A stretch of DNA of 64,000 nt. Origin: Apiotrichum sp. Y4204. Taxonomy: Eukaryota > Basidiomycota > Tremellomycetes > Trichosporonales > Trichosporonaceae. Numbering within the stretch: position 1 is the stretch's first letter; each line of letters starts with the position of its first letter. The notes beneath the pieces are model-generated. The model saw only the letters and a program-made list of their open reading frames with translations, did no database searches and was not told the origin of the DNA. Location of the stretch: the NCBI GenBank assembly GCA_025531455.1, contig JAMYHL010000059.1:1-64000 (forward strand), written 5' to 3'. Of the stretch, positions 2,372-24,274 are shown piece after piece. The position numbers and the translations under genes were made by a program.

Positions 2372-3662
2372 CTACAGCGACTTGCGGCGGCCCTTGATGG
2401 GCACCTTTTCCTTGCTGAGCTCGCTGAAAAACTGTTCGCGCCGGTTACCGGAAAGGTTGAGGTGCTCGGCTACCTCCAGCTGCGGAGTGTTTGCAATCCA
2501 CTGCTCGACCGAAAAGTCTTCGAATTTCGGCGCGCGGAACATCTCCAGAAACTCGAGGTCGCCGTCGCCAATGTTTTCGACATAGTGGGCGTTGTTCTTT
2601 TGAAAGATGCCAACATCTCCCGCCATGTAGTTGAAGGTGCGCGCGTTGCCCGAGCTCGCAAAGATAGTAACGCGGCACCAACCGCGCAGCACGAAGAACC
2701 ACTCGTCCGCGTTCGGATGCCAATGCATTTCGCGCAATCCACCGGGCTTGACAATCACGTGGGCAGCTGCAGTCGTCTTAGAGATGGGAAAGTTGCTGGT
2801 ATCGGTGATGCGGACCTCGCCCCCCGGGAATTTGAGAGGCTTCTGCCCGAGCATACTATGAACAAAGCGATGTTTCGATGGCGTAACAGCCTTTCGGGCG
2901 TCATCCAGGCTCCCGGGATCGCTGCCTTGAAAGATGTACTTCTCTCTGGGGGAAAGAGTGTCAAACACTTTGGGTGAGACGCGGAAGTTGTGGGCAAGGA
3001 TGTGCTTTGGTGTGCGGGCAAAGTAGTCGGTCAGAAGAAACGTGTCGTCCTCGGAGAAGTTGCCGCTGTCGAAGATAAGGAGGAACTCGACACCATGTGA
3101 GCCAAGACCTGTGCGTGAGCCTCATTGACCTGACCAAGAGCTTCTTCATTCCGCTGGGGGTGTGCTCACCCTGGATACCGTGCGGAAAGCCCGAAGGAAA
3201 GTACCACAGGTCACCCTTCTTAAGATCGTTGATAGCGCAGCCGCCCTCCGTGTCCAACACCGTTATCCGACACTCTCCCTGGAATCAGAGACATCGGTCT
3301 ATGCCTCTTACCTCGATGATGTATGCCCACTCGTTCTCATTGTGCCAATGCAGCTCGCGATAGACACCCTTTCCCAGGCGCATGTTGACACCCGCGAGCT
3401 CCTTTGAGCTGGGCAACTCGCGGACTGTCGTCTCACGCGCCCAACCACCCTCCTCGAGCCGCATGTGCGAGTCGGCAAAGGACCACTTCATGCTAGCCAT
3501 TTTGCCGGCGTCTGTCTCCGGCGGGCAGATCGTGTCAGGCTGCTGGGCCTGCCGGTCCAGGTTCTGCGGGCCGAGGATGTCGTTACCATACTTTCCGCGG
3601 CGCGGGACGGGCCGGGAGAAGTCCAGCACGGACTGAAGCGACTCGAGAGATGGAAGGTGCAT
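2372..3662 (-). CDS. Bicupin oxalate decarboxylase
   Basis: Three exons (3662-3312, 3278-3170, 3108-2372; introns 33 and 61 nt) encode 398 residues. The family converts oxalate to formate and CO2 with Mn in two cupin domains. Cupin 1 shows HWHNENE (H105, H107, E111) and later GFPHG. Cupin 2 shows HWHPNADE and NAHYVEN. The lid that places the catalytic glutamate in the bacterial OxdC enzyme (SENST) reads SEDDT here, with the glutamate kept, so decarboxylase rather than oxidase activity is expected. No signal peptide is seen, so the protein is probably intracellular. The frame is open upstream to an ATG at 3758, which would add 32 residues; the start at 3662 matches the usual family N-terminus better. 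Confidence 0.88.
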
Positions 3663-3963
3663 GTTGTGGTGGATGAGTGGCCTAGCGGCAAGTGGATGGG
3701 TGATAAGAGTAGGAAAGAGCAATTCGGGATGCGCGATGTGTTGACTTATGTGCAGCATCTTCCCACCGCATCTTGTTGACGTCGTCTGGATACTAACATG
3801 ATGACGTCAAGGTACTGATTGAATTATCCGCTACAGACCACTTCATCTTCAGTTACGAGATATAAAGCAACTCCGTGCCGGGGAGGTAATGAGCAAAAGC
3901 CATTTCGCAGCATCGGTCACAGCCGTGCTCAATACCGTAGGTTGGGACCGCTCCGATTCCGTT

Positions 3964-5245: not shown

Positions 5246-6088
5246 TTAAGCCTCTGGTTCGCCTGACGACGACCAGTGCAAGCTCTGCAAGGGGAGTTCC
5301 CTATGGACTACACTCACTGTAGTTAGGGCCGAGGTCTCGTTGATGCGGACCATCCGGACGCGGAAAGCTTCCTGGTACGCGTGAAGAGCGTTCCATTGGG
5401 CAGTGGTAAGGGCTGTTGCCCAGACACCGCCATCGTACTTGTACGCCAGACCGTTGACGATGATGATGGCAGAGTAGAGACCTCGAGTGGGGGAGGCGGA
5501 CAGAGTCAGAAGACTGATACCGCTGGAATAAACGGTGACAATTTCAGACGCAATGCCATAGCTGTCCAGACCGCGGTAATCCGCAACGGCCTCCGCAGCG
5601 TTGGGTGCAAGAATGAGAACCATGTTGGGAACGGCAGCGCCTCCGACTGGGCCAAGGCTGGTTGGGAGGCTGGTAGTGGTGGACGCAACAGTAGTTGGAG
5701 GTGCCTCAGTGGGAATGGTGGAAGAGGTCGTGGCGGGAGTGTTAGTGGCAGTCACTGAAGTCCCAGAGGCAATCGTTGTTGGGGCCGCAGTCGGGGCGGT
5801 TGGGGCCGCACCAGCAGTGGTGACAGGAGCAGCAGTGGAGACCGGACGAGAAGTGGTTGTCGCAGGGCTGGATGACCTGATGCGGGTCGTCGTAGGAGGG
5901 GTCGGGAGAGTGGACGAAGTCTTCACTGGGATCGTGGTGCAGATCTCAATCAGACCTAGTTTGAGACACGAAGAAGTTACAGCTGCCGAAGGAGTTACGG
6001 CCGCTTTGCTCTGGCGTGTGAAGCCATTGCGGAGGCTGATGTCTTTCCCGACAAGAAGTGGTCTTCCGACCTCGCAACACTCGACTGA
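5246..6088 (-). pseudogene. Agd3-like fragment: Ser/Thr linker plus CBM87-like module
   Basis: An open minus-strand frame runs from 6088 to a stop at 5246. It has a Thr/Ser/Pro/Ala-rich stretch of about 90 residues, then a module beginning MVLILAPNAAEAV and containing LDSYGIASE, ALTTAQWNALHAYQ and RVRMVRINE. This resembles my recollection of the N-terminal carbohydrate-binding module (CBM87) of the galactosaminogalactan deacetylase Agd3. The frame then ends about 25 residues later, and the CE18 deacetylase domain is absent from the window. No ATG, signal peptide or clear first exon precedes it; the longest downstream start codon is a GTG near 5926. I read it as a decayed or truncated gene, though a short secreted binding protein with an unseen first exon is possible. 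It lies beside the Sph3-like gene on the same strand. Confidence 0.5.
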
Positions 6089-6647
6089 CTAAATGTAGCT
6101 CGGCACCAAAAGACACTGAAGTACAGCATCGGAGCGCGGAGATTTGGCAAGAGTTGGCACCAAAGGCCGGTGAATAGTCAAGCTTGTTGTTGGGTGGCCT
6201 GTCTGAGAAGTAAGCCTGTAACACAGTTGTTTCGGTCACAAACAGGTCGCCGAGTTTGTCTTTTCATAATCTCAAGACTAGCAAACAAGCCATTGCGGAC
6301 GACAACGTTTCGAGTCTTCACCGTGTTTCCCGGACGACGAGGCGAGCGAGATACCAGTGATCTTTTAAGGAAAAGCCATTGTCAGGAGAAAGAAAGCTGA
6401 TGTTGAAGCCGCGTCTATAGTCCGCATTTACCGTAGTTGACGAGGGGGCTACTTATGAGACATGCATTCTAGAGCGGAAACGACTTGGATCTACGGTGTG
6501 TTCAGCTGTCAGCCGCAATAGCATGAGGCAACAGGAAAGCAGATTGGCACATTGTTTAGGATAGAGATCATCGCCGATGGCTTCCCCTAACACATCCACA
6601 GAGCGGTGGTCGCGAGCTAGGTCTTCAACGAATGCGGATGCGCGTTC
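6089..6647. other. Intergenic, no gene seen
   Basis: About 560 bp between the Agd3-like fragment and the Sph3-like gene. Only short, domain-free frames occur. If the Agd3-like gene has a first exon it should lie here, but I found no signal-peptide-like sequence with usable splice sites. Confidence 0.45.
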
Positions 6648-7544
6648 TCAAGTGTTTCCGTTCATTTCGGCGACGAAGCAAGCCACGGGGAGCCATGACG
6701 TGGGCCATTCGTTGTAACCGCCATCGAGCTGCTCGGTGATATAGATGCCGCCAAAGCCCAACTTTTTGATCTCGCCGGCGAGTGCTGTCGCTGGTTTTAT
6801 CTCGCGCTTGCTGGGCAGGTTGGCACCGTCTGCATGAACGCCAAAGGAATGAATCATGGCCACCGCCTTGTGTCGCAAGGGGCGAGGGACTCGACACAGG
6901 CCTTCGGTCAGGAAGTAGTTGCACCAGCGCTGGTGTGACTGCTCGAAGACGACTACGAGGTCGGCGTCCTCCAGATAACCTTTATCGACGACGACTCCAG
7001 GGTTGTAGACGACTAAGCCTCTGGGGCGGCCAGCACCGCCAGTGCTGTAAGGTTTGGTCCGGGGGTCGGTCACCCGAGTGGTCTCCGTAGAACACCACAG
7101 CTGGCGAATGTAGGTTGCCAGGTCGGCCATGTAGGTGCGGCGTGTGCACTCCCATGGGGCTTCATCGATGAAGATCCCGTCGATGTGGAACTCGCCGCAG
7201 GACGCAGCTTCCCACGCCCCGTAAACGTCAATCTCACGCTTGATGATGTCGGGGTCACGCACAGCATACTGACAATGCACGTAGCCTATCAGCTGGATGT
7301 TGGACATCCGACCGAGTTCGCCAAGGGCGGCCCTGTAATTGGCATCGGGTAGCGACTCCTGGCCGGGACCGCTGCTGGGGTTGACGACGCAGACGAAGAG
7401 CACATCCGGGTTGGAGGCAGCCGCAGCGAAGAGGGGTCCCCATGCTCCGGGAGACGGATAAATGTAGAGAGGTAGAACGAGCGTTAGTCGTGTCATGCGG
7501 GGCGACGGGCGGGTCAGCAAACGACGAAGGCGTGAAGGAGGCAT
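6648..7544 (-). CDS. Sph3-like glycoside hydrolase (GH135, spherulin-4 family)
   Basis: This single-exon gene encodes 298 residues of the spherulation-specific family 4 fold, a TIM barrel. It opens with LVLPLYIYPSPGAWGPL. It then has VCVVNPSSGPG, QLIGYVHCQYA and the strand DGIFIDE, where D127/E128 match the conserved acidic active-site pair. The family member Sph3 cleaves GalNAc linkages and is required for GAG production in Aspergillus. Unlike Sph3, this protein shows no membrane anchor or signal peptide before the barrel; the second ATG at codon 17 is also a plausible start. It lies between the Agd3-like fragment and the epimerase, transcribed away from the latter, which supports a role in exopolysaccharide trimming. 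Confidence 0.82.
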   Translation of the reverse strand: MPPSRLRRLLTRPSPRMTRLTLVLPLYIYPSPGAWGPLFAAAASNPDVLFVCVVNPSSGPGQESLPDANYRAALGELGRMSNIQLIGYVHCQYAVRDPDIIKREIDVYGAWEAASCGEFHIDGIFIDEAPWECTRRTYMADLATYIRQLWCSTETTRVTDPRTKPYSTGGAGRPRGLVVYNPGVVVDKGYLEDADLVVVFEQSHQRWCNYFLTEGLCRVPRPLRHKAVAMIHSFGVHADGANLPSKREIKPATALAGEIKKLGFGGIYITEQLDGGYNEWPTSWLPVACFVAEMNGNT

Positions 7545-9467
7545 GTAGGGGACTGGCCGTTGTCGAACGTTGAGGTCGGATCGACAGCTTAGGGTGTCGG
7601 TGGAGAGAAAAAGACGGCAGGCAAGTCAACTGGCGTGAGGCGGAGAGCTAAGGACGACAATACGAGAGGATGCAGAAACAGTGCAAAGATGAGGTGGTCT
7701 CGTTTGTCAATCAAACCTCCCATCGCAGCCCTGTGAAGGCTTCTGGGAAGCCCCAGCCCCTACTTGGGAGCCGCTTGGGACACGGACTCTTGGATGCGAA
7801 CAGGCGAGAAGAGACCTTTAACGGATGCTTGCCCGGTACATAGCTCCCCGCGTTGCCTCACTGGATCACTGGACGCCCCTCTGCAGATGCAGATGACTCA
7901 AGGCGCAGGGCCGGGCCCCGACTTGAGATCTTTAGACATACTCTGTGCAGGCACACATACATCCGACGCCACGGCGTACGACTTGATGATGGCCCCGACG
8001 GCCGGAGGCGATGGCGCACGTTGTGCTCGGCTGGGTCCTTTCGGGAGATTTTCGGGATTGAAACCTCTGATAGTATTGAAACGGCTGTGGAGCTCCAGGA
8101 AACACCGGACGCAAGATAACCCTCGGGACCAGGTGGGTCAAACACCCGTGAGGCCGTGAGGCTTGATTGCTGTTTAAGATGGAGCAGAGCACAGATGCTA
8201 GGCAATGCAAGGGTCCCAGTCAGACTACTGTAGGGCCAGCGAGGGGCGTTGAAGGCAACGCCGGGCGATCATGAGTGTTACACGGTTGATGCTCATGACG
8301 CTTTCAATGATTTGGGCTTTCCGAGACGGCGCAAGATACCATCGGATATGAGGATGACAGGCGGGAGATGCCGCGTGTAGGTTGCACAAGCATTTGCCGA
8401 TCACTGGCGTCGCCATCGTTCAGTAGTGGCGCCGCTACTGTAAGGACGGGTGGCGGAGGGGGTGACTGTCAGACCATCGCGTTTGTCCAACTCTCCGTCT
8501 GCCACTGCAAGGGGGTACTCGGCGATTGCACGCGGACCTTCTACGCCACGGTACAAGTTCATGTGAGACGCGGTCGCGTCTCTCATGGAAATCGCACAAA
8601 AGCAACAAATGTCAAAATTGACAACACAATCCTTATCTCTTACAGTCACAGATACAGTCAGAGCTGTGCTTTGGTCCTTTCCACTTCGATGTCTGAACGA
8701 CAAGAAACTCACCTCCCGAGCGAAACGACTGCAAAAGGTCTGGCCCCGCACGCCTGATCTCCAACGGAGCAGAAGACAAGATGATTGACTAAATCTCCGA
8801 AGTTAGACAAAGGCTCAATTGATACACAAATAACTCTCCTCCTGCCTGGTCACTCACACACCAATATCAAAACAATTGTTTATGCGGCCTGAGAAATCTG
8901 GGCCGCTGGGCAGTGGGAATGCGGACTTTGTGGCCGAAGTGACGCTTCATGCTCAAGTTGCACCAGCCAACGTTGACACGCTGAGTGCTATGGGGGAAGG
9001 AAAGTGTTGTCGACTAAGTCTCGGGAAACAGAACGCCTCTTTGCTCTGCATCAGTCTGACACAAGTCAGGTTCTGAACACAGGTGGTAGGCGTTTCCAGA
9101 TATACTCAAGTATCTACTCAAGAGTAAAGAACGTGGGAACGCGGCGGAAAACCCTTGCCTCTTGGCGACAGAGACAAGAACTGGGGTGACGGAGGTCGAC
9201 ATAGACCGACTTCTATTTACCACAGTAGTCACCTGTGCATCCGTGTCTGTCAATCACACAGCCGCAAAGTCGCAGCTCTGTCGTCACAAGGCGCAGAAGG
9301 TTGAACGCCTCTGACTTGCCATTTCTAACAGCTCTTGGTATCCACTTCGTCGTCCTTTAAAACCTCTACGGGCAAACCACCTCTTCACCCTCCTTTTTAC
9401 AAGCTCTGTCGCCACTCTCATTTGTTTTCTTCTTACAAAAGTACAGCTCTATATTCCCTAAGCTGAG
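7545..9467. other. Long divergent intergenic region, no gene seen
   Basis: About 1.9 kb separates the Sph3-like and epimerase genes, which point away from each other. Only short unrelated frames are present. The last 120 bp before the epimerase is pyrimidine-rich. The length suits a shared regulatory region for the exopolysaccharide genes, which is inference. Confidence 0.45.
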
Positions 9468-10766
9468 ATGGAGTCCGCATTCGACCAGACGGCTTCGGGT
9501 TGTTCTTCATTCTCGGCGCTCACCGACACTCCCGGCAGCACCTGTCCGACCACTCCGGGATCGGACAGCGATGCGGTATTCTTTCCCGTTGCCAACAACA
9601 ACAACGACTACACACTTGTCATCGGCGGCCTCGGTTACATTGGCTCCCACACTGCGGTTGAGCTCCTCAAGGCTGGAGAAAACGTGATCATCGTCGACGA
9701 CTGCAGCAACAGCTTCGCCACAGTTCTCGCTCAAATCGCCACCGCGGCAAGCATTTGGTGCAAGTCTAATGATCGTACCCTCCCCGAGCTTCAGTTCCAC
9801 CAAATGGACTACCGTAGCAAGGCCATGCGTTCTATGCTGGAGGCCTACTCCGACCTTGTTCTTGAAGCTCCTGAAGAGGGAGGCGAACCCACACTCTGCA
9901 GACGCTCAAAGATCGTCGGCGTCATTCACTTTGCGGCCTTCAAATCCGTGGGCGACTCGATCTCCAATCCGATCAGTTACTACCGCAATAACGTTTCCGG
10001 TCTTATTGACCTCGTTGAACTTCTCGGCAGCCACAACATCAAGAAGTTTGTCTTTTCATCGTCCGCCACCGTCTACGGCACCAAGGCCGACCTTGGCCTT
10101 CCTCTCAAGGAGGAGGATGTTGTTCACCACCCTTACACGTACCTCGATAACGGCAAGGAGGTCACCGTCATGCCTGGCGTCACCGGTCTTCTCTCGCCCT
10201 ACGCGCGCACAAAGTACTTTGGTGAAGCCATTCTTGCCGACCTCGCCTACTCTGATCCTTCGTGGAACATTATTGCCCTTCGCTACTTCAACCCCATCGG
10301 CTGTGACGCCTCAGGCCTTCTCGGCGAGGACCCCCGTGGCGTTCCCACCAACCTCTTTCCCGTGATCACCCAGGTTCTCACTGGTGACCGCGAGCATTTG
10401 AACATTTTCGGGTCCGACTGGGACACCCGCGATGGAACGGCCGTGCGCGACTTCATTCACGTGTCTGATCTGGCTCGCGGTCACATTGCGGCGGTCGACG
10501 CCACAGTAGATGCCCCTTTTCGGACCTTCAACCTTGGCACCGGAACTGGGACGACCGTGGCCGAGGCGCTCTATGCGCTCGAAGCAGCCTCGGGACAAAG
10601 AATCCCAAGTCGTCTGACTGGGCGCCGCGAAGGCGACGTCGGCTCTTGTGTGGCTTCCAATGCCCGAGCCACCATAGAGCTTGGTTGGACGACTACCGAG
10701 ACTGTGGTGCAAGCGGCACGCGACGTTTGGAACTTTGTGTCCCACTTCCAGCGTGTCGCGGCTTGA
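9468..10766 (+). CDS. UDP-glucose/UDP-GlcNAc 4-epimerase (Uge3-like)
   Basis: This single-exon gene encodes 432 residues of the short-chain dehydrogenase epimerase family, which interconverts UDP-Glc with UDP-Gal and, in some members, UDP-GlcNAc with UDP-GalNAc. The NAD-binding glycine motif is GGLGYIGSH (about residues 53-61), the catalytic serine region is SSSATVYG, and the YxxxK pair is Y245/K249 in YARTK. RYFNPIGCD and GTAVRDFIHVSDLA follow in the usual order. It is longer than typical GalE (about 340-370) because of a 45-residue polar N-terminus and an insert around residues 215-235. No Gal10 mutarotase domain is fused. Its position between the GH135 gene and the giant transferase argues for a dedicated sugar-nucleotide supply, like Uge3 in the Aspergillus GAG cluster. 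Substrate preference cannot be read directly. Confidence 0.9.
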   Translation: MESAFDQTASGCSSFSALTDTPGSTCPTTPGSDSDAVFFPVANNNNDYTLVIGGLGYIGSHTAVELLKAGENVIIVDDCSNSFATVLAQIATAASIWCKSNDRTLPELQFHQMDYRSKAMRSMLEAYSDLVLEAPEEGGEPTLCRRSKIVGVIHFAAFKSVGDSISNPISYYRNNVSGLIDLVELLGSHNIKKFVFSSSATVYGTKADLGLPLKEEDVVHHPYTYLDNGKEVTVMPGVTGLLSPYARTKYFGEAILADLAYSDPSWNIIALRYFNPIGCDASGLLGEDPRGVPTNLFPVITQVLTGDREHLNIFGSDWDTRDGTAVRDFIHVSDLARGHIAAVDATVDAPFRTFNLGTGTGTTVAEALYALEAASGQRIPSRLTGRREGDVGSCVASNARATIELGWTTTETVVQAARDVWNFVSHFQRVAA

Positions 10767-12216
10767 TCCCGCCCCTGTTTATCTTTGCTGCCCACATCTC
10801 CACGACGTCTTCGCGTCTCTCTCCATGGCTTCATATCTCCGCCTCTCAACTGCATATCGCGTCAAAGCTGGCTTCCCACTGTACTGTATATAGCTCTTCA
10901 TGGATATTGCATCAATGACATCTAGCCGCATCCTTGGCGTTTCCCGTGCCTCACATGTACGGTACACACGTTGCAGATTCAATGGCGCCCGGACATGAGC
11001 ATGAGGGCGACGATCATCGGAGACCCAGTCAAGAAAAGATGCTGTACATACGCTGCCTATGTGCTGCGCATCTGTTGTGACATGTGGGTGCACCGCGTGC
11101 TTCTGCGCCTAATAAAATCTCACGCCCAGCGCCCCGACGGACACAAGTGTCGTCCTCGCATTTCCGCCATTTGCCTTGAGATACTGCAGCAACCGCGGCA
11201 GCGCCCTCGTCATCCCTGGAGCATAAACGTCTGGCTGGTGAGCAGTTGAGTTTTGCAGCCATGGATCATGTTGACCAATGCACCCTGTTTCCGGTAGCAG
11301 CTATTTTGAGTGTCATTGTTGTCAGTTGCTCCCCACGATCTGGCCGATCTGGCGGCGTTGTGGTCATGTTTTAGAAAGATGCAGAGTCCGGTGGCCGGTA
11401 ACCTTGTAGCTCGTCGTGCAACCAGAGGAGTGCCCAGATCTCACTCACGACGCCCAAGAGAATGTCGATCCCGGTAATGAGATTCATGAGAGGCAGCACT
11501 CATCAAGCTGAGCTTCGGCCTGCAGACTCACAACACGTTTTTAGACGCCGGCGCACTCAGCCTATCAGTTCCGGGGATGCAAGTACCACACAAGGGCCAT
11601 CACCCGGTTGTACACCAGATCTCAGCTGCAAGAAGCGCACTAGGAGGAGGTTTTAGTGCTTTCGCACTTTCGCAGTGGAACGAGCACGCCAGATCAATGA
11701 CCACAGCGACACTCACCACTCCGTCCTAGATTCCTCTGCCTTTCCCACACCCGATCCTACCACACAAACACGATCTAATCTGCTCACCATCACTTCATGT
11801 CGCTTCTCAGGATCAGATCGGACTTGCAGATCTGCCGCCCCCCAGCCTCTTACCTCAACGTCAGTGACGTGTCGGGTTTGAGGGGCGGGCCTGTAGACGA
11901 TTCCCCTCACTCTTTTTAACAGGCTGAGCCGCCGATATCACCAGAGTGCTGTCGGCCACTGGAACGTATGTAGGGATTCAACCACCCAACCTACTCACCA
12001 CTACAGAGGTCACAACCACGACCGCTCTTTACTGCGACAACTTTCATTCTGTTGAAGTAATCCGGAACCGACTTCTCTGAACATCACAAACACACGGAGT
12101 GGTCCACAGTGAGTGACAAGTACTGAAGCCGTCAGACGTTGTCTTCCATCCGAGGCGGCGCAACGTCCTCCTCGGTTTCCACTGTTGACAGAACAGTTAC
12201 ACTTTGGTTACCCAAG
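10767..12216. other. Intergenic, no gene seen
   Basis: About 1.45 kb between the epimerase and the giant transferase, both on the plus strand. All frames are short and without domains. It should contain the epimerase 3' end and the transferase promoter. Confidence 0.45.
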
Positions 12217-15200
12217 ATGGCCACCTTCTTTCAGCCGGGCTTCAACGACGTGGCGGTACTCTCGAATTGCACTGTCGGGGGTTTCACAATCTTCTGTAAC
12301 TCGATATTGCCCTCCACCCGTCGGCTGGCAAAATGGTATCAGATCTTCAACCTCATCTTTGCAATAGCCGCAATGACGCTTCCCATTCTGGTGTATGCGG
12401 TATCTCGATTGTGGCCAAAGGGTACAGTTGCAAGTTCACCGAAGGGAAGTAGAGGAAGAGCGGGCGGAGGCGGTGGCGACACAACGCGTATGCAGACAAG
12501 CTCGTCCAGGTGGGTTATAACGCTGTCTTTGTGCCCAGGTCTCTGTTAACATGTGAACAGTACCCTGAGAACGCGTGTCGGTCGCATAGGAAACAGTTCA
12601 GAGTCAGACTTTGAGGTCAACATCTCGGCGTCCGGGTCCTCGTCTCTCCGCACCACGTTTCGGAATACAAAATCGTTCCGCGTGCTGTCGCAGACTTCTC
12701 TTGATGGGATCATGTCCATTGACGACTCTGGAACCTCGGATCTTATCGTGTTTCCACTCAACAACCCTGGAAGCGGCCTGGACGATTATGACTTTCGCAG
12801 TCCGAGATTTGGCAGTCTTCCAGCCTCAATTGCCAGTGGACGAGACTCAGTTGGTACATGGGCAACAACTGGCGCTCAGATGCGCCTCGGAAGCGTCGAC
12901 CTCGAGGCCCTTGGCGACGATGCGCTAAGTGACGAGGCTATTGGCTTGACAGTTGGTGAGATGGTCGAGCGATACAACCAATTCGACCTGATGGGTTTTG
13001 CTCTCCGCTGCGGGTCCACAACAGATCCTGATCAGGTAGACCGCCTGCTCGGTCTTCTCGAAGATCGCGAAATCTCCTGCCTACTCATGTGCAACCATGA
13101 CACCGAGAGCATAAGCTCGCTAAATCTCTCGTTGGCGGCGGGTCTTATCATCGAGAATGCCGTAATCCTCGCAACCGGCGAAGCACGTGACTACTTCCAG
13201 GCCGCTCGCCTCCGACAAGTCATGACGCGCTGTGCACGAGAACGCGAGACGCGTCCCGAGTTCTTCATCGGTTACCACGACCACTGGCTCTATCGTCCTC
13301 ATCCTTCTGTTATAAAGCGTGCCATCAAGGTTGCGGAACATTATGGTGCTGTTCTCGAGCATGGGCCATTTCAGCTCTCGCCCGGCCTCCCCGCGATGCC
13401 CCCTAGGCACACCATTGGTGGCTTCGAGTACCTCCGTCGCGCCGAAATCATCGACCTCCAGCGTTCGTGGGCGTCTGAGTCTCGCAAGGTCTGTCTGGGT
13501 TCAACGTCGAGCCCACTTGCATGTCTTCCAGTTGATGACATTGAGCGAATGATTCCCGGTGTCGCGGAGTGTCTCGTCTCCCAACCCCTCCCGATGGAGC
13601 TTGCGCGTCTGCAGAACGAGGCCGTTGAGTGCGTCGAGCCCCCGTCATACCTGAAAGCTTTCCCTTCCATCGGTACCGACTTTTGGGAAACCGACCTCGA
13701 AGGCCGCCTTCTTGCCGCCAAGGGCTGCTTCCCGGTTGGATCCGAGCCGCACATGGGCCACTACGACTCGATTGTCGCCGAGCAGGTGCACCTTCGCGAG
13801 CTCAACATGCTCCACTCCGTCGAGGGGACAGAGGAGCAAGCTCTCCTCGCCGCCTTTCGCGCTCTGGCCGCTGACCCCGGATGCGACGTTGCTGTCCATG
13901 ACCTCATCAACGGCCTGAGCTCTAGACAGGTACGCGTCTACAAGGGTCTGCACACTGGCTTCCGTGTCCCCGACTGCAACGCCAACTTCTGGGGTGTGGC
14001 GCATCTACGCGACGTGTCCGACCCTGGGGGCTTGGTTATCTATGTCTCTCAGCAATCCCCAAACGATTCAGCGGTCATCTTGCACACATGGCTTGCCCAT
14101 CACGATCGCCCGCGCGTTGCGCGCGTCAAACATGAGCTCGTCCTTGAAAGCATCACTGGCGCGGGACACGTTAGCGGTCTGCCTGCGACCATCCGTACCG
14201 CCCTCGACAACAGCTCGCCTTCTGAACTTCTCCTGGTCATTCAAAAGCTTCGGCTCTCCAGCCCTCGATTACTTCTGGGTGAGGAGATCAAGGCCTATGT
14301 CACACACCTTCTGCTCGACCAGACGTCCAGCGACACATGGATGACACTGTGCGCACGCAAGGCCTTGGACGGGACGATGACTATGGTTGAGATTCTCTGT
14401 CTTCGACTCGAATACCACGCCCGCCGCGGAGCTACGCATCTTCCTCTTCTTGAAAATCTGGTTCGCCTCTACACTATCATTGACATGGCCATTGTGGATG
14501 CGCTCTTTTATGGCTGGCACGATGTGCTTAGATGCTTGACGACCTCTCTCATCAAGTGCTACACGCGATCGACCGCTCCTGATGGCAGCGAGGAGCAGGT
14601 CGATGTCGCTGCCGACATATTTGCTCTCATCTTCTTCTCCTCCCTCCGCCGTGCGGCCTTTGAGGATGTTTACATCGAGACGACCGACCGCTGCCCTCTA
14701 TTCCTCATGAAACCCGATCAGGCGGCCGTCTTTGGCGAGCTGTGGACTCTCGGCTCCCAGTGTGAGAACTACTTTGGCATTGTCCCACAGGAGATTGGTG
14801 ATATCATCTACCACCGCCGCAACCAGGCGCTTGAGGCTATCGGCGCCCCCACCGCCACCGACCGCAAGAGCAACGAGATCATGACCATGTACTCTAGCAC
14901 CGACCCGACACCGGATATCAAGAAGGAAAGCGTTCCCAAGATGATTGCCGAATCGTCTGCGGTCACCAAGTTTAGCCCCTACGAATGGCTCCAGGTCTGG
15001 AAGATGCGTTTCGCCACCGCCAGTGCAGTGTCCTTATTCTGTGGCCCGGCAATCGTGGACGTCGTACTCCTCACCTTTGTTGGTCGTGGTCTTTTCATGA
15101 CGGCGTACATGAAGCCTGACCATGTACAGGCCGCGGGATACGCTTTGCTCACCTCCCTTCTGCTGACGGCCGGTGTGACGGGATGGGTTGGCAGCGCAGG

Positions 15201-18200
15201 CTCTCACTACCTGCCTCATTACGCCTACGACAACGTTATCTACTTCCACGTGCAGCGGCTCTCTGGTGGATTTGTGCTCGCTCTCGTCATCTCTATCCTC
15301 GGTCTTGTCGGATTCGGCGTCAAGCTGAGTATAGCCGCTGGCCTTGTCTTCGCTGCCTATCTCATGTGCATATCCACATATCTCAACCTTCTCGGAATTA
15401 TGAGTACCATGCACCAGCACGGGAGCCCGATGCGTTCTGGCCGTAACGTCTTCATTCAGAGTTTTCCCGTACTCTTCATCGCTCCTTTGATTTCTTCTTT
15501 CGTGAATGGCCACGACTTGGAAATCTATCTTCCGACCATGTACGGTTTCTTGTTATTCACGCTGTTTCGCTACCGCCGCCTGTGCCACCAGTGGTCGTCG
15601 TGGATGGACCAGATCCCACTGTTCAGTCATCAAGACATTCTTGATTGGTACAAAAAGCGCGCATCCTCAAACGAGAAGGACGGCCAGAGAGGGGAGGGCA
15701 ATCTTCTCACTGCTGACGCCATCGGTGCATTCAGGGAGGCCGTCAACTCTTACAAACGTCGCGACGACAGCCAGGTGCTCAAGGACAAGCTCGTCGCCAG
15801 AGTTGTCAAGGGCTTGCCATACATCGACTGGCTGTTCAAGAAGGGTGCAGAGCCTCCCGATCTCTTTACTACCGCTTGGTTCACTGCGTTGGGGGAGGCC
15901 AAGTCTCAGCAGAGGCAGCTCTCCCGCGGGCTCCAGGACCACAACGTCATAGCCCTGTTTCGCATGTCCCGATACGATCTCGGACAGAACCTCGGCCTCT
16001 TCCTCGTTGCTCTCCTTGACCGTTGGGTCATGTTGGCCATGAGCGCTCGCCAGCCATACCCCAGCATGTACACTGACGATCGTGCTCGGTACGCGTTTTG
16101 TCTGTGCATCATCTACTTTTGTCTTTCTTCGATGATCCTCGACGTCACGCTCTCCAAGTACTGGTCAGCTCGCGACGCTCTGTCTGAGGAAAAGCTTGCC
16201 GACCTTGCCCACGCCCAGCGTGTTGCTGCTGAGGCTGAGAAGAAGCGCAAAGACTGCATGTACAATGCCTTCATCGACGCCATGGGCAAAGTCTGCGTCG
16301 TTTACGGCTTCATGACCATCATATTTTGGCTCTTTGTGGACCGCAAGGACACGACCATCATCTATTACCTTTACGGCTTGGGCTACACCTGCTGTGTGAT
16401 ATTCCAGTTCATGAGGTGCTTTACCACCAACGTCGCTGTCCACGTCAAGATCCTCCTTTACTCGGCCTTTGGGTGCTTCATTATCGGCTGCGTCCTTCAC
16501 GCGCTGCCATGGACTGCGGGCTTTCTCTACAACGACATCATTGTTCAGAATCTTGCCGCGGCATCTGCTGCCATTGGTACGACGATTTGGGCCTTCAGAG
16601 ACTGGACGTCGGTGCCTTCGCCTCTTGCTGCTGTGCCATCCAGCAACAGCAGGGACGAGCATGTTTACTCTCAGCGCAGAGTCATGGCATCCCCCTACAT
16701 CGAAGGACCTAAACTCAAGCGTGAGCTTCCGAAAAGCTTCACGCAACCTACTGTTTGGAACTTCGACGGCACAAGCACATCGGAACAGATCACGAAGTCC
16801 ATATGTCTTGCCATGGGACACGAGGGAGTGTGCAGCGGCTGGGCATCCAAGGTCCTTCAAACAACGCTCGACATGTGGACCACGGGTCGCCTCACCGCCT
16901 CTGTGCTTGGGCGTCAACACTTCATTCAGGCCAACTACGAGGCGTTCAGCTCAATGTCCTTTCGTGACGGTCTTGCGCTTCATGTTGCAGTGTGTTTCGC
17001 CCAGCCGATTGCAACTTCAGTCTCTGCGTCGGTGATCGGATTCTCCACGCATCGGCATCTGCTTCCCGAGGTCGTTGCCAACGCGTTGGTCTACCATGTT
17101 GCCCACGTTCAACTTGGCCTGTCCGAGACCCAGTCGCTCTACGCCGAGCATCTTCTTCACCCCACCGAAACACTGTCTCGTCGTCTCGAGGTGGACCTCG
17201 CACTCGCCGACTCCGCTTCTCTCACCATGCTTGCCCGCAAGACCTGGAAGGACGTCATGAATCACTTGTCCCTCGACCTCGACCTCGACACTCAGTGGCA
17301 TTTACTTCCCCAAGATGTCCGTGCCGTAATTTTGAGCCGCATCGATGGCCAACCGTCCAAACTTACGCCCGAGTTCAGGCTTTGGGCCGAAGCAAATCAC
17401 GTTGACATTGCGGCCGCAAACTACTGTACCAAACTATCTCTGGAGCTGCATCAAAGGGGTCTAGAGCAATTGAACAACATCGCTGCCTACCCGCCCCAGA
17501 GCTCGAGCACCGCCCACGAGCCCCCGTCGCAGCTGCACCCGGTCCACATTGCCCGCGGCAGTCAGTTTGGTCTCTGGCACAAGATTTCTCGCCTCCCTTA
17601 CCTTGCCGTCAAGTGGATTGCCATTATAACCGGCGGTGGATCAAACATTGAGCGCGAGCTTCACTATCTGCTCGGGGGCAATGGCATTTGTCTGCGATTT
17701 GTCCTTGCTGTCTGGAAGGTTTGCTGGTGGATCAAGAATGTGTGGGTCTACTGGATACTCATTTACCACCGTCCGGCCATTCAAAAGATCACCCGCCAAG
17801 CCAGGAAGGGTGCCCGTCGCAAGATTACGAACAACACTATCGTCGTGGAGCTCGCTCGTCACTCAATCACGGGATTCGCTACCCTCAACGAGGAGGATCG
17901 AGCAATGCAGCTGGCGGTGTACAAAGATGTCCACATGGAGGTTCCCTCCGGCACTCCCCTATTCACTGCCAAGTACGACGAGCAGTACCGGCTGCGGAGC
18001 CGCGTGGAAGGTGATTCTCTCCGCTCTACCTACCATTACGATACGGCGTCTCGTTCGCGCCGCCCCGCCAGTGTCAAAGTTGTGAACGACTCGCTTTGCA
18101 GCGTGGGTTTCTACGATAAGAACGGTCGTGTTGTCAAGGGCACTCTCAATCTCGGCAACACCAATATCGTTTTCCATTACCACTACAAGCGGGGTAACAA

Positions 18201-20760
18201 GGGCAACTCCCACGTCCTACGCGCCGACTACGCCATTACCCAAGGCAGCAACTTGCTGTCAGTCTTTTGGGGCAACCCTGTGAACATGGAGAACTTTACT
18301 TGGGTGCCTTCCAAGCGTGTTGGCCTTGTGAAGCGTTGCATCGGTGGAAGAGTGTACATTACCGAGTACGACTGGTCCCACCGTCGTGACCCTATTCTAA
18401 CCACCTATGTCGAGGAGGGTGGACGCCGCACTGCCATTGCTGAGACGCCCAGTGTCTTTCCCAAGGAGTCCACACTTCTCACGGTTCCGACCAACCACTC
18501 ATTTGAGCTTGACGACCTCCTGCTCCACCACTCGACTCTTCAACTCGGCCAACTGCGCCGTTGTGCCATCAAGAAGCCGAGCCGCGTCGCCAAGCTAAAC
18601 CCAGTCTACTGGATCGGCGCTTGGCGGAAACGCACGTACACCCTTATCCCGACTTGGCGTCTGCGCACAGAACTGTGGAACCAATGGCTGAATACCGACC
18701 AGGTGGACGCCGTCACTGCTTGCACTGTCGACGAGATTCTTCTGCGCGAGGAGCCCCTCCTCCGCAACTACTGGCTCAATCGCGACCGTGGACGCCTCGA
18801 TGCTGCACGCAAGGCTCTTGACGATGACATCCACCAAATCGTCTTGGCCATCGACATTGAGACGGATGTTTCCGAGAAGACGCTGATTGCCATCCGCACT
18901 TCGGACCTGTACGCCATGGGCCTTGGGCAGGACGCCAACCCCGTCACAACTCGTCCGCAGGACTGCTACAACGACACCCGTGATCGCATATCAGTCATTT
19001 TCAATGACATTGGCTGCTGGCCCGTCGCCCCTGGCGGTGTGTCAAACTGCCGTCGTGATCTGGTCAATGGACACAACACCATCCGCAATCACGTCCTTGC
19101 CGAGTGCGCCAACGACTACGGTATCCCCCGTTTCCAGGTTGAAAAGAGTGTTCAGTCACTCAAGCTTCTCCCGCTGTGGGGTATGGACGGTGGCACAGCC
19201 AAGCACGGTGTCATTGACAACTACCTCGAGTCTCAGGTCGACGAGAAGGTGGAAGACACGGATCTTGATCGCGACATTGTGAAGACTTTTGTTCCTCTCC
19301 TCGTTGACTTTGTCAAAGGCTGCCGCACCCGCCGCCTCTCGTACAATGATCTTGTTCAACTTTCAAACGTCTTCCTGTCCATGGCAAAGTACTACCAGTA
19401 CAAAGATTACACTCGCACTTGGCGCTCGGCTCAGGTTAAGCAGGCCTGGATAGCCGCCTGGGTCAAGGAGTACAACGACCCCAACATTGTGGAGCCGACC
19501 GAGTGCTTTGAGATCTCCCGCCCGTCCATGTTCGACTTTCGCCAGGCACTTTATATCTACCTCGCCTACTTTTTCATCTTCGCCGTCGGGGTTCCTAAAC
19601 ATTGTCCTCGCGTCTTCCAGTCGACACATCATGGCATCAGCTCTCTCTTTGGCATGGTGCTCAAGTACCGCCGCGGCGTTACGTTCGGGATCTGGGACCA
19701 CGCCATTCTATGGCGCGAGAGTTGCCTCAACTTCTCCGTCGCGCAGTGTGAGCTTCCGGTGGCCGTGCAAAACATGCTCCTCTCTGGTATCGGCGTCGCC
19801 ACTCGTCTGGCTTACTTCCACACCGATGTCATTATGCCCTGCGCCTCGCTCTTCAACCCCATGTGGGAGTGTGAGCTTGGTTCGGATGGCGCTCGTGTCT
19901 GCAGCCGCAACGTCTTTCGGCGCAAGATTGACCCCATTGTCAATGGTATCTCGAACATGGAGGCGTTCACCCCAGTGGAGAGGGTCCGCAGCGAGATCCC
20001 AACCGTCCTCATGCTCTCCAATGTACAGTTTATCAAGGGCGTCAAGGTTGCTATCCAGGCGGCCGACATCATCGTCAATCGTTTTGGCTTCAAGGACTAC
20101 AAGCTCGTCGTGTATGGCGCCAAGGACCGTCAGCCGGCGTACTGTCTCGAGATGGAGAAGCTCATCGTCGATAACAACCTCTCCGAGCACGTCATCCTTG
20201 CAGGTTTCGGCAATCCAAAGGAAGTCCTCAAGGACGCTTGGCTGTTTATGAACTCATCCATCTCGGAAGGTCTCCCGCTCGCTATCGGAGAGGCTGCATT
20301 GGCTGGCGTGCCGATTGTTGCCACCGAGGTTGGCGCCACCGCCCTCGTCCTCACCGACCCCGATGACCCCGACCAACGTTACGGTGAGGTCGTTCCCCCC
20401 AACGACCCCATGGGCCTCGCCCGCGCTCAGATCAGCATCCTCGGCATGGTTGGCCCGTGGGCGAAGTTCACTGCTCCCGAGACTGGCCCCGCACTACCCG
20501 ACGTGATCAACGTCGAGGACGTCGAGTGGCTCACCAAGCGTTTCTACGAGTTCTCCGAGGATCGTCGCAAGCTGGGCTTCCTCTCGCGCCAAGTCGTCCT
20601 GCGCAGTTTCCATGGATCCCGCTATCTCCGTGAACACGAACAGATGTACTGGATCCAGTGGCACTTTGCTCGTATGCGCGCCGACACGGCCCTCAAGCCG
20701 CTTCCCTACAAGTTTGGCGTCCAGGAGCTGTTGCGTTACAGCGAGGAGGATGATTCGTAG
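12217..20760 (+). CDS. Giant membrane glycosyltransferase, Gtb3-like (GT4)
   Basis: Two exons (12217-12509, 12561-20760; intron 51 nt with a GTTAAC branch) give 2830 residues. A transmembrane helix lies at about 41-63. A soluble region follows (about 230-420, with FIGYHDHWLYRPH and FEYLRRAEI). About a dozen helices span roughly 915-1430, then comes a large soluble region. The C-terminal GT4 domain (about 2430-2790) shows STHHGISSLFG, VLMLSNVQFIKG and the nucleotide-sugar EX7E pair in SEGLPLAIGEA (E2667, E2675). The THHG and HAILWRE strands recall bacterial PelF, and the multi-helix block recalls PelG, partners in Pel (GalNAc-rich) export. Domain order, size and the neighbouring epimerase and GH135 genes match Gtb3 of the Aspergillus GAG cluster. 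It should polymerise UDP-Gal/UDP-GalNAc at the plasma membrane and extrude the chain. The ATG at 12217 follows an in-frame region with no earlier ATG. Confidence 0.82.
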
Positions 20761-22538: not shown

Positions 22539-24274
22539 CTAGAGAATGGCCAGCAACAGGGCTGCCATCAAGGTCGAGAGCTTGCCCATGGGAACAGCCA
22601 GTCGTCCGCTGCCCGAGTCTTTTTGGGTAGTGGTCGCGTTGGGCGACATCTTGTCGGTCTGGTTGGAAGTGGAGTTTGCCGTCGCCGCAGCGCTCGTCTG
22701 AGTCGGCAAGTCCCACGCGACTCCGGTAGTGGTCTCCTGGCGGAAAGTCTTGTTCGCGGGCGTCAGAACGTTCAGGCTGGGAGGGAGCGGCGCAAATCCA
22801 AGCTCCAGCGTGTCGTACTTGAACGCGGTGTAGACATTCCGCAAGAATGGCAGCCCAAGCATGTACCTAACGCCGGTTAGCATCTCCGTTGCATGTTTCC
22901 TAGCTACCGCGTACTCACAAGTCAAGATCATCAAGTGACACAATGGGGGCAATACAGAAGTCGGGTTTTCCGGAGGGATAGGCTCCTCCCAGCAGATGGA
23001 AGGGCTTGATGTCCCACTTGCGTCCCCGGATGGTAATAGAAATGGTTGTCGTTGTGTTGCAGGGGATGGCCCATTCTGGAGAGTCTGTGCGATACTTGTA
23101 GGAGCCCGGAATACGCTCATAAATGTCCTGCACCACCTTTGGGGGGAATGTCAGGAAGCCGGAGCCTGGGTGAACGAGAGAGCGGGCACGCGGCAGCCCG
23201 ACAGACTCCATGGTGCTTCCGTTGATAAACTTTGACGGAGCGAGAGTGATGTTTGCGCCGTCAACAGTGATAGCGTCGATGGCAAAGCGGAAATGACTGT
23301 CGCTGGGGATATACGAGATGTTGCCAGAGTAGTACGCCGGATTTGTTCCACTACGCCGCAGTATCAGCATCGTGCACATGTCATGTCCGCCGCCTTCACC
23401 AACTCCACCATTGCAATTTTCTTGCTCACCCAAAGGTAATTACTCCCTGGTTGTCCTCCTGGCCGTCCACCCAGTCCGTTTCAGGAAACGTTGCCGTAAA
23501 CGTCTTTTCGACAAACAAACCAACGATAGGCTGGGCCCATGTCTTGGCCAGCTGGCTAAAGAATGATGTTGCGGGTGCCCCCGGATCGACAGCGGCGAGG
23601 AGACCCAGGTAGCCCTTGGAATCTGCACGGATTTTCATCCTAGCATACGCGTCCTCGGTCTGGTTGACGCTTTCCAGAACACTGACTGAGGGTGTTAGCT
23701 CATTTCGAGATGGAATAAGGTGTTTGCCTACCTATCGTGGCATTTGACTGCAATCCTGCGAGTATAACGGACTCCTCCACGACCTGAGTTATGACCTTTG
23801 AGAGCCCACTGTCTGTGACGTTGACAGACGGCACAGGATGGAATGAGCTGGACTGATTGGAGATGTATCCACAAGGGGGACGTCTAAAGCACCACGGTCC
23901 ATCCATGCCCATGTCCGCGTCTTCGCTGAAAAGGACGAGTTGCGAGTATTCCATAGTCAAGGTGACATTGTAGGGGCGAGGAGGAGTGCTGTTGTTAGTG
24001 GGCAGGTGCTACGGGGCACGCGAGTCAACTCACCCAACCTCGATGCCGACGTAGTACTTCGAATTGGATGCCGGATACGATTCGATTATTGTCAAGCTGG
24101 AGCGTCAGCACAGCCAGAGGGTTCATACTCAGAATCTCACTTGGCATCGTTGCGTTTGGCGAGAGCTGGCGCGTAATCACGTCGCCATAGCGGCACATCA
24201 ACCGGGCCATCCACGGCGAAGCCGTAGACCGAGACGAGCCCCGCCGCGGCGATCGCAAGTGTCGTTGTCAACAT
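22539..24274 (-). CDS. GPI-anchored pepsin-fold protein lacking both catalytic Asp
   Basis: Six exons (24274-24141, 24096-24034, 23988-23732, 23685-23430, 23350-22919, 22866-22539; introns 44-79 nt) give 489 residues. There is a signal peptide (MLTTTLAIAAAGLVSVYG), then SKYYVGIEVG as in A1 aspartic proteases, the GYLGLLA loop with a SFFSQL helix, and the closing YMLGLPFLRNVYTAF strand. The C-terminus is Ser/Thr/Asn-rich with a hydrophobic GPI-attachment tail. Where active proteases carry DTGS in the first lobe this protein has LVLFSEDAD, and the second-lobe D(T/S)G is LVHPGSGFL. Neither catalytic aspartate is recognisable, so a binding or adhesive role is more likely than proteolysis. It is divergent from the membrane protein at 24759. 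Confidence 0.78.

What the first reader, a model, noticed from the sequence alone, without database searches (positions are those of the whole stretch)
5246..20760. Galactosaminogalactan-like exopolysaccharide cluster in a basidiomycete
Seen: an Agd3/CBM87-like fragment, a GH135 (Sph3-like) hydrolase, a UDP-hexose 4-epimerase and a 2830-residue multi-helix GT4 transferase lie consecutively with no unrelated gene between them. Known: in Aspergillus fumigatus the uge3, gtb3, sph3, ega3 and agd3 genes form the GAG cluster. Inference: this yeast makes or once made a GalNAc/Gal-rich exopolysaccharide, with a rearranged gene order and no GH114 (ega3) in view. This is the best candidate for a little-described system here.
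Basis: partly seen in the sequence, partly recalled or inferred. Interest (0 to 1): 0.88.

Follow-up and report, generated by a model that had tools for sequence, protein, structure and literature searches.

The report
Decaying biofilm-sugar gene cluster, duplicated genome
The window holds one of two copies of a known fungal gene cluster for a sticky sugar polymer; this copy has lost two of its five genes and the other copy's polymer-modifying gene is interrupted too, so the fungus may still make the polymer but in an unmodified form.

Summary
Window 5246-20760 carries an Agd3 CBM87 remnant, an intact GH135 (Sph3-type) gene, an intact UDP-hexose 4-epimerase and an intact 2,830-residue GT4 gene, with no other recognised gene between. 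It is a galactosaminogalactan (GAG) cluster, but not a little-described system: Lee et al. 2016 reported the complete cluster, lectin staining and inferred horizontal transfer for Trichosporon asahii. New here: a collinear second copy of the window (85-92% identical) lies on contig C124 of this 48.9-Mb, hybrid-like assembly. That copy has all five genes, GH114 (ega3) between agd3 and sph3. Relative to it the window lacks 1,987 bp (most of agd3) and 3,678 bp (agd3 5' end plus ega3). The C124 agd3 has an in-frame TGA inside its catalytic domain, before the catalytic-acid motif. No intact deacetylase gene was found, while gtb3, uge3 and sph3 are open in both copies (homeolog dN/dS 0.18-0.31). Best reading: a GAG locus whose synthesis core is kept while its deacetylation module decays, predicting acetylated, poorly adhesive GAG. 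The TGA rests on one assembly; organism, expression and product are untested.

The parts
5312..6017 (-). agd3 remnant: part of the Ser/Thr-rich linker and the first half of CBM87; lacks the signal peptide, the second half of CBM87, the CE18 catalytic domain and the C-terminal domain (open frame 5246-6088)
   Evidence: Pfam CBM87_Agd3 3-101/214; PDB 6nwz residues 21-119, E 1.8e-10; 84.9% identical to C124 10875-11584
5280..5311 (.). junction of deletion 1: C124 8888-10874 (1,987 bp, most of agd3) has no counterpart here
   Evidence: blastn blocks; size
6017..6017 (.). junction of deletion 2: C124 11585-15262 (3,678 bp: agd3 5' end, its upstream region and the whole ega3/GH114 gene) has no counterpart here
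   Evidence: blastn blocks; size
6648..7544 (-). sph3-like gene, GH135, 298 residues from the first ATG, one open frame, intact; Asp-Glu and a downstream Glu aligned with the solved GH135 protein
   Evidence: Pfam Spherulin4 E 1.1e-59; PDB 5d6t and 5c5g, E 1.9e-39 and 2.6e-39; length
9468..10766 (+). uge3-like UDP-hexose 4-epimerase, 432 residues, one open frame, intact; Cys at the position of human GALE Cys307
   Evidence: 93.1% to the C124 copy; 39-40% to the other epimerase genes on C159 and C9
12217..12509 (+). gtb3-like gene, exon 1 (with an N-terminal hydrophobic segment, seen by eye)
   Evidence: gene model with 51-base intron GTGGGT...CAG in both copies
12561..20760 (+). gtb3-like gene, exon 2; whole protein 2,830 residues: hydrophobic segments in the middle, PelF-like GT4 domain at the C-terminus; intact

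Best explanation
The window carries the second, partly decayed copy of a galactosaminogalactan (GAG) gene cluster in a fungus with two diverged, collinear genome copies. Mechanism, from the published pathway: the epimerase makes UDP-Gal and UDP-GalNAc; the membrane-spanning GT4 protein (Gtb3 type) is thought to polymerise and export the chain; Sph3 (GH135) is needed for GAG; Agd3 deacetylates part of the GalNAc outside the cell so that the polymer becomes cationic and sticks; Ega3 (GH114) cuts the deacetylated polymer. Here the synthesis core (gtb3, uge3, sph3) is open in both copies. The deacetylation module is failing: in the window agd3 is a remnant and ega3 is deleted; on C124 ega3 reads as intact but agd3 has an in-frame TGA inside the catalytic domain. 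Shown: gene content, deletions, the TGA in this assembly, collinearity of the two loci. Inferred: that the genome is a hybrid, that the core is expressed, that no working Agd3 is made, and that any GAG is therefore fully acetylated and shed rather than adhesive.
For: Families. Collinear second locus with all five genes. C124 ega3: two exons cover GH114 profile 1-120 and 121-231, 345 residues open across a 59-base GT..AG intron. C124 agd3, pieces searched apart: 6nwz Agd3 163-502 and 505-684, Agd3_CE 1-253 and 255-366, with an in-frame TGA at C124 9649-9651 between them. H668 and M666 of motif CM4, both needed in the published adhesion assay (PMC7229062, passages), fall after the stop when the published numbers are laid on the 6nwz chain (offset 122, counted by hand). 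Only one CE18 place in the assembly. Core genes open in both copies, dN/dS gtb3 0.196, uge3 0.182, sph3 0.308. An A. fumigatus agd3 deletion mutant still secretes GAG, without GalN and non-adherent to negatively charged surfaces (PMC4817252).
Against: The TGA rests on one codon in one assembly; an assembly error or strain polymorphism is not excluded, and the other stretches of that gene are open. Pairwise dN/dS averages over the time before the losses, so it cannot show that the core is still under selection. The remnant shows no clear relaxation (5 window-side against 2 C124-side changes, 13 undecided, P 0.45). In Metarhizium, loss of the Agd3 homologue did not abolish lectin staining (PMC8224951; its authors point to a paralogue). 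No expression data, no sugar chemistry.
Confidence: 0.6

Rival explanations
1. The C124 stop codon is an assembly or base-calling error: one genome copy has a normal, complete five-gene GAG cluster like that of T. asahii, and the window copy is just a redundant homeolog losing genes after hybridisation.
For: A single in-frame stop; both flanks stay in frame and match Agd3 to the C-terminus. Homeolog loss is ordinary in Trichosporon hybrids (PMC6642101, passages).
Against: The other cluster genes in the two loci show no such lesion: gtb3 twice 2,830 residues, uge3 twice 432, sph3 twice 298, ega3 once 345.
Confidence: 0.3
2. The whole locus is dead or dying: GAG is no longer made, and the open frames of gtb3, uge3 and sph3 only reflect recent loss.
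For: agd3 disrupted in both copies, ega3 lost in one, a Ty3-type element with identical 287-base repeats between uge3 and gtb3 on C124. The three gaps over 1 kb between alignment blocks of the two copies (window 885-64000) all lie in the cluster.
Against: Three core genes open in both copies, gtb3 alone about 8.5 kb of coding sequence each time; homeolog dN/dS 0.18-0.31.
Confidence: 0.15
3. The cluster makes a related but different GalNAc polymer, since GT4 and epimerase families are not specific to GAG.
For: The GT4 domain is closest to bacterial PelF among NCBIfam models, below that model's cut-off (76 against 100 bits).
Against: On C124 all five GAG gene types are together, including Agd3 and GH114.
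Confidence: 0.08

Closest known systems
GAG cluster of Trichosporon asahii (Lee et al. 2016, PMC4817252; passages and part 1 of 3 of the Results seen)
   Same: Five GAG genes at one locus, as on C124 here; a mobile element at the cluster
   Different: There a MULE transposase in the cluster; here two copies, no MULE hit on either contig (0 of 15 hits in the genome), a Ty3-type element on C124, a window copy without ega3 and with an agd3 remnant, and a C124 agd3 with an in-frame stop. T. asahii's gene order could not be seen (supplement not held)
GAG cluster of Aspergillus fumigatus (gtb3, agd3, ega3, sph3, uge3)
   Same: All five gene types side by side on C124
   Different: C124 order is agd3-ega3-sph3-uge3-gtb3; if the order in which PMC7329490 lists the A. 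fumigatus genes is the chromosomal one (recalled, not checked), gtb3 sits at the other end
Bacterial Pel polysaccharide system (PelF GT4)
   Same: The GT4 domain scores best with PelF among NCBIfam models; Pel is a GalN/GalNAc polymer (title and abstract start of PMC9135694 in the listing)
   Different: Score below the PelF cut-off; here part of a 2,830-residue membrane protein; other Pel proteins were not sought

Membership tests
Fungal GAG cluster | gtb3, agd3, ega3, sph3 and uge3 at one locus | tested here: not met
   Window: three intact genes, an agd3 remnant, no ega3. On C124 all five are present, agd3 interrupted
Fungal GAG cluster | Large membrane GT4 transferase (Gtb3) | tested here: met
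   2,830 residues, GT4 at the C-terminus, hydrophobic segments in the middle; direct comparison with A. fumigatus Gtb3 was not possible
Fungal GAG cluster | GalNAc-capable 4-epimerase (Uge3) | tested here: inconclusive
   GalE family with Cys at the human GALE 307 position (position counted by hand); that this residue governs N-acetyl-sugar use is recalled; distinct from a second epimerase pair
GH135 (Sph3) | Spherulin4 domain with acidic active-site residues | tested here: met
   Pfam E 1.1e-59; Asp-Glu and Glu aligned to 5d6t; their catalytic role is recalled (paper not held)
Agd3 (CBM87 + CE18 + C-terminal domain) | Complete CE18 domain with motifs CM1-CM4 | tested here: not met
   Window: half of CBM87 only. 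C124: stop inside CE18 before CM4
Ega3 (GH114) | GH114 gene in the cluster | tested here: not met
   Absent from the window; present on C124
Fungal GAG cluster | Product is an alpha-1,4 Gal/GalNAc polymer, partly deacetylated | not testable with these tools
   Needs chemistry
Horizontal origin from Sordariomycetes | Agd3 nests among Sordariomycetes in a tree | not tested
   No fungal protein collection answered; the claim is from PMC4817252 for T. asahii
Hybrid (allodiploid) genome | Two diverged collinear subgenomes genome-wide | tested here: inconclusive
   Window 885-64000 collinear with C124 4464-80894 at 85-92%; TIM on two contigs. One region and one marker only

The most novel reading that the evidence does not exclude
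A natural deacetylase-less GAG producer: both genome copies keep the GAG synthesis core, but no working Agd3 is encoded, so the fungus would secrete a neutral, fully acetylated GAG. Deacetylation (and with it adhesion) and polymer production would then have been uncoupled by evolution rather than by a laboratory deletion.
Probability: 0.4. Interest if true: 0.62.

Novelty: new member of a known kind. Interest (0 to 1): 0.42.

Why it matters
In A. fumigatus, adhesion through GAG depends on deacetylation by Agd3. A fungus that keeps the synthesis genes twice but no intact deacetylase would let one ask whether acetylated GAG has a use of its own (a shed or shielding polymer) instead of adhesion. 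It also shows how a cluster thought to have come by horizontal transfer erodes unequally in a duplicated genome. If the stop codon is an error, what is left is ordinary homeolog loss.

Tried and rejected
The search for PF17117 used a wrongly recalled accession and means nothing. AlphaFold models of two parts of the transferase from single sequences were useless (mean pLDDT 36 for the N-terminal part; 33 for the GT4 part) and were not searched. The GT4 part found no PDB relative at E 0.001. No Rfam hit in the window. A lineage test on the CBM87 remnant was undecided. A short intron explaining the C124 stop was considered and rejected: Agd3_CE and 6nwz run through the place with at most two residues unmatched, and the nearest GT..AG pair would span only about 26 bases (read by eye). 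Other GH114 genes were checked as displaced copies of the lost ega3: C129, C68, C166 and C1 are 41-54% alike to the C124 ega3 over stretches of 37 residues or more (one 16-residue piece 69%), so none looks like its homeolog. A MULE near the cluster, as in T. asahii, was not found.

The species was not identified: the sizes reported for the T. ovoides and T. coremiiforme hybrids are about 42 Mb (passage of PMC12204505), this assembly is 48.9 Mb. That I found no paper on loss of agd3 or ega3 in a Trichosporon hybrid rests on searches (65, 26 and 7 papers held the terms; 20, 26 and 7 were listed). Ten papers were opened, all for passages; in one (PMC4817252) also part 1 of 3 of the Results. An own search for hybrids listed 15 of 60.

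Full report
What is there. Five open frames in the spaces between them gave no Pfam family. With its 51-base intron the transferase is 2,830 residues in both copies of the locus. A simple hydropathy scan of its main exon gives 10 segments above 1.6, two of which (191-209 and 2583-2601) lie away from the membrane block at about 826-1319 and are doubtful; exon 1 adds one seen by eye. Its C-terminal domain is GT4 in Pfam and scores best with PelF in NCBIfam, below that model's cut-off.

A second copy. The assembly has 48.9 Mb in 182 contigs. The window from base 885 on is collinear with C124 4464-80894, in blocks of 84.9 to 91.9% identity. GH135, CBM87, the cluster epimerase and the large transferase each occur at two places, window and C124; a distant epimerase pair (39-40%) sits on C159 and C9, and triosephosphate isomerase is also found on two contigs. 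This is what an allodiploid or hybrid genome looks like, though only one region and one marker were tested. Natural hybrids are known in Trichosporonales, with 7% and 17% amino-acid divergence between the parents of T. coremiiforme and T. ovoides (PMC6642101, passages). Here the gtb3 and uge3 homeologs differ by 5.7 and 6.9% in amino acids.

What differs between the copies. On C124 the order is agd3(-), ega3(+), sph3(-), uge3(+), gtb3(+), within about 29 kb including an extra 7.7 kb between uge3 and gtb3. That extra stretch holds a Ty3-type LTR element (reverse transcriptase, RNase H, integrase) with two identical 287-base direct repeats, so it is probably young. Relative to C124 the window lacks 1,987 bp (most of agd3) and 3,678 bp (agd3 5' end and ega3), and the element. 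These three are the only gaps above 1 kb between the alignment blocks; that all fall in the cluster was noticed after the fact.

The deacetylase. The C124 agd3 was searched in pieces. They match PDB 6nwz Agd3 residues 163-502 and 505-684, and Pfam CBM87 1-138 and 136-214, Agd3_CE 1-253 and 255-366, and Agd3_C. Between the two Agd3_CE parts stands an in-frame TGA at C124 9649-9651. Setting R613 of the paper to chain residue 491 (offset 122, counted by hand on the printed alignments), M666 and H668 are chain 544 and 546, after the stop. Alanine mutants of both abolished GAG adhesion in the published assay, and constructs without the accessory domains were unstable (PMC7229062, passages). A truncated product should therefore be inactive. 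No second CE18 place was found in the assembly. The window remnant has no signal peptide, half a CBM87 and no catalytic part; tblastn finds no GH114 in the window and only a chance-level CE18 match elsewhere in it (E 0.96). The C124 ega3 reads as 345 residues over two exons.

Selection. Pairwise dN/dS (Nei-Gojobori, Jukes-Cantor; frames include a few codons outside the exact gene models) is 0.196 for gtb3 (2,735 codons), 0.182 for uge3 (434), 0.308 for sph3 (304); for the agd3 remnant 0.364 in CBM87 (104 codons) and 0.545 in the linker (121); a neighbouring cupin gives 0.017. So the core genes were constrained over most of the time since the two copies split, much less strictly than the cupin. 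This does not prove constraint after the losses, and the remnant is not clearly relaxed.

Mechanism. From the literature: Uge3 supplies UDP-Gal and UDP-GalNAc, Gtb3 is thought to polymerise and export, Agd3 deacetylates outside the cell, Ega3 cuts deacetylated GAG, Sph3 is needed for GAG (PMC7329490 and PMC8224951, passages; PMC4817252, passages and Results part 1 of 3). Loss of agd3 in A. fumigatus leaves total secreted GAG unchanged but removes GalN and adhesion to negatively charged surfaces. Applied here: the synthesis core is present twice, deacetylation is absent unless the stop is an error; Ega3, which acts on GalN regions, would then have little substrate, in keeping with its loss from one copy. 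The application to this fungus is inference throughout.

Against the reading. In Metarhizium, loss of the Agd3 homologue did not abolish lectin staining; the authors point to a paralogue (passages). Here no paralogue was found, but only with a CE18 and a CBM87 query in one assembly. The stop is a single event in one assembly. Taxonomy, expression and product are untested, and no fungal homologue collection could be searched.

Novelty. Lee et al. found the cluster in 28 species among more than 250 fungal genomes, T. asahii being the only basidiomycete, with soybean-agglutinin staining and an inferred transfer from Sordariomycetes. The present locus is therefore a new member of a known kind. What I did not find in print is the two-copy state with unequal decay and the interrupted deacetylase.

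Noticed in passing
G000:C124 21135-28211 (L016 1135-8211): Ty3-type LTR retrotransposon with identical 287-base repeats between uge3 and gtb3, absent from the window; probably a recent insertion.
   Followed up: partly
window 2372-3121 (minus): A cupin gene next to the cluster (Cupin_1, E 2e-20), almost unchanged in protein between the two copies (dN/dS 0.017). The neighbouring frame 3285-3806 gave no Pfam family.
   Followed up: partly
G000:C68 and C166 (L007, L008): Another GH114 gene pair, 89% identical over 2,477 bases, plus matches on C129 and C1; none looks like the cluster ega3.
   Followed up: partly
window 22915-23439 (minus): Aspartyl-protease-like frame downstream of gtb3 (Pfam Asp, E 1.4e-5).
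   Followed up: no
window 1-50000: G+C is 53-58% in the first 30 kb and 59-64% from 30 to 50 kb; the cluster lies in the lower part, but so do its neighbours.
   Followed up: no
window 6648-20760: sph3 and uge3 are single open frames and gtb3 has one intron, whereas the other epimerase genes (C159, C9) and TIM show stop codons inside the matched stretches, perhaps introns; would fit an outside origin, not tested.
   Followed up: no
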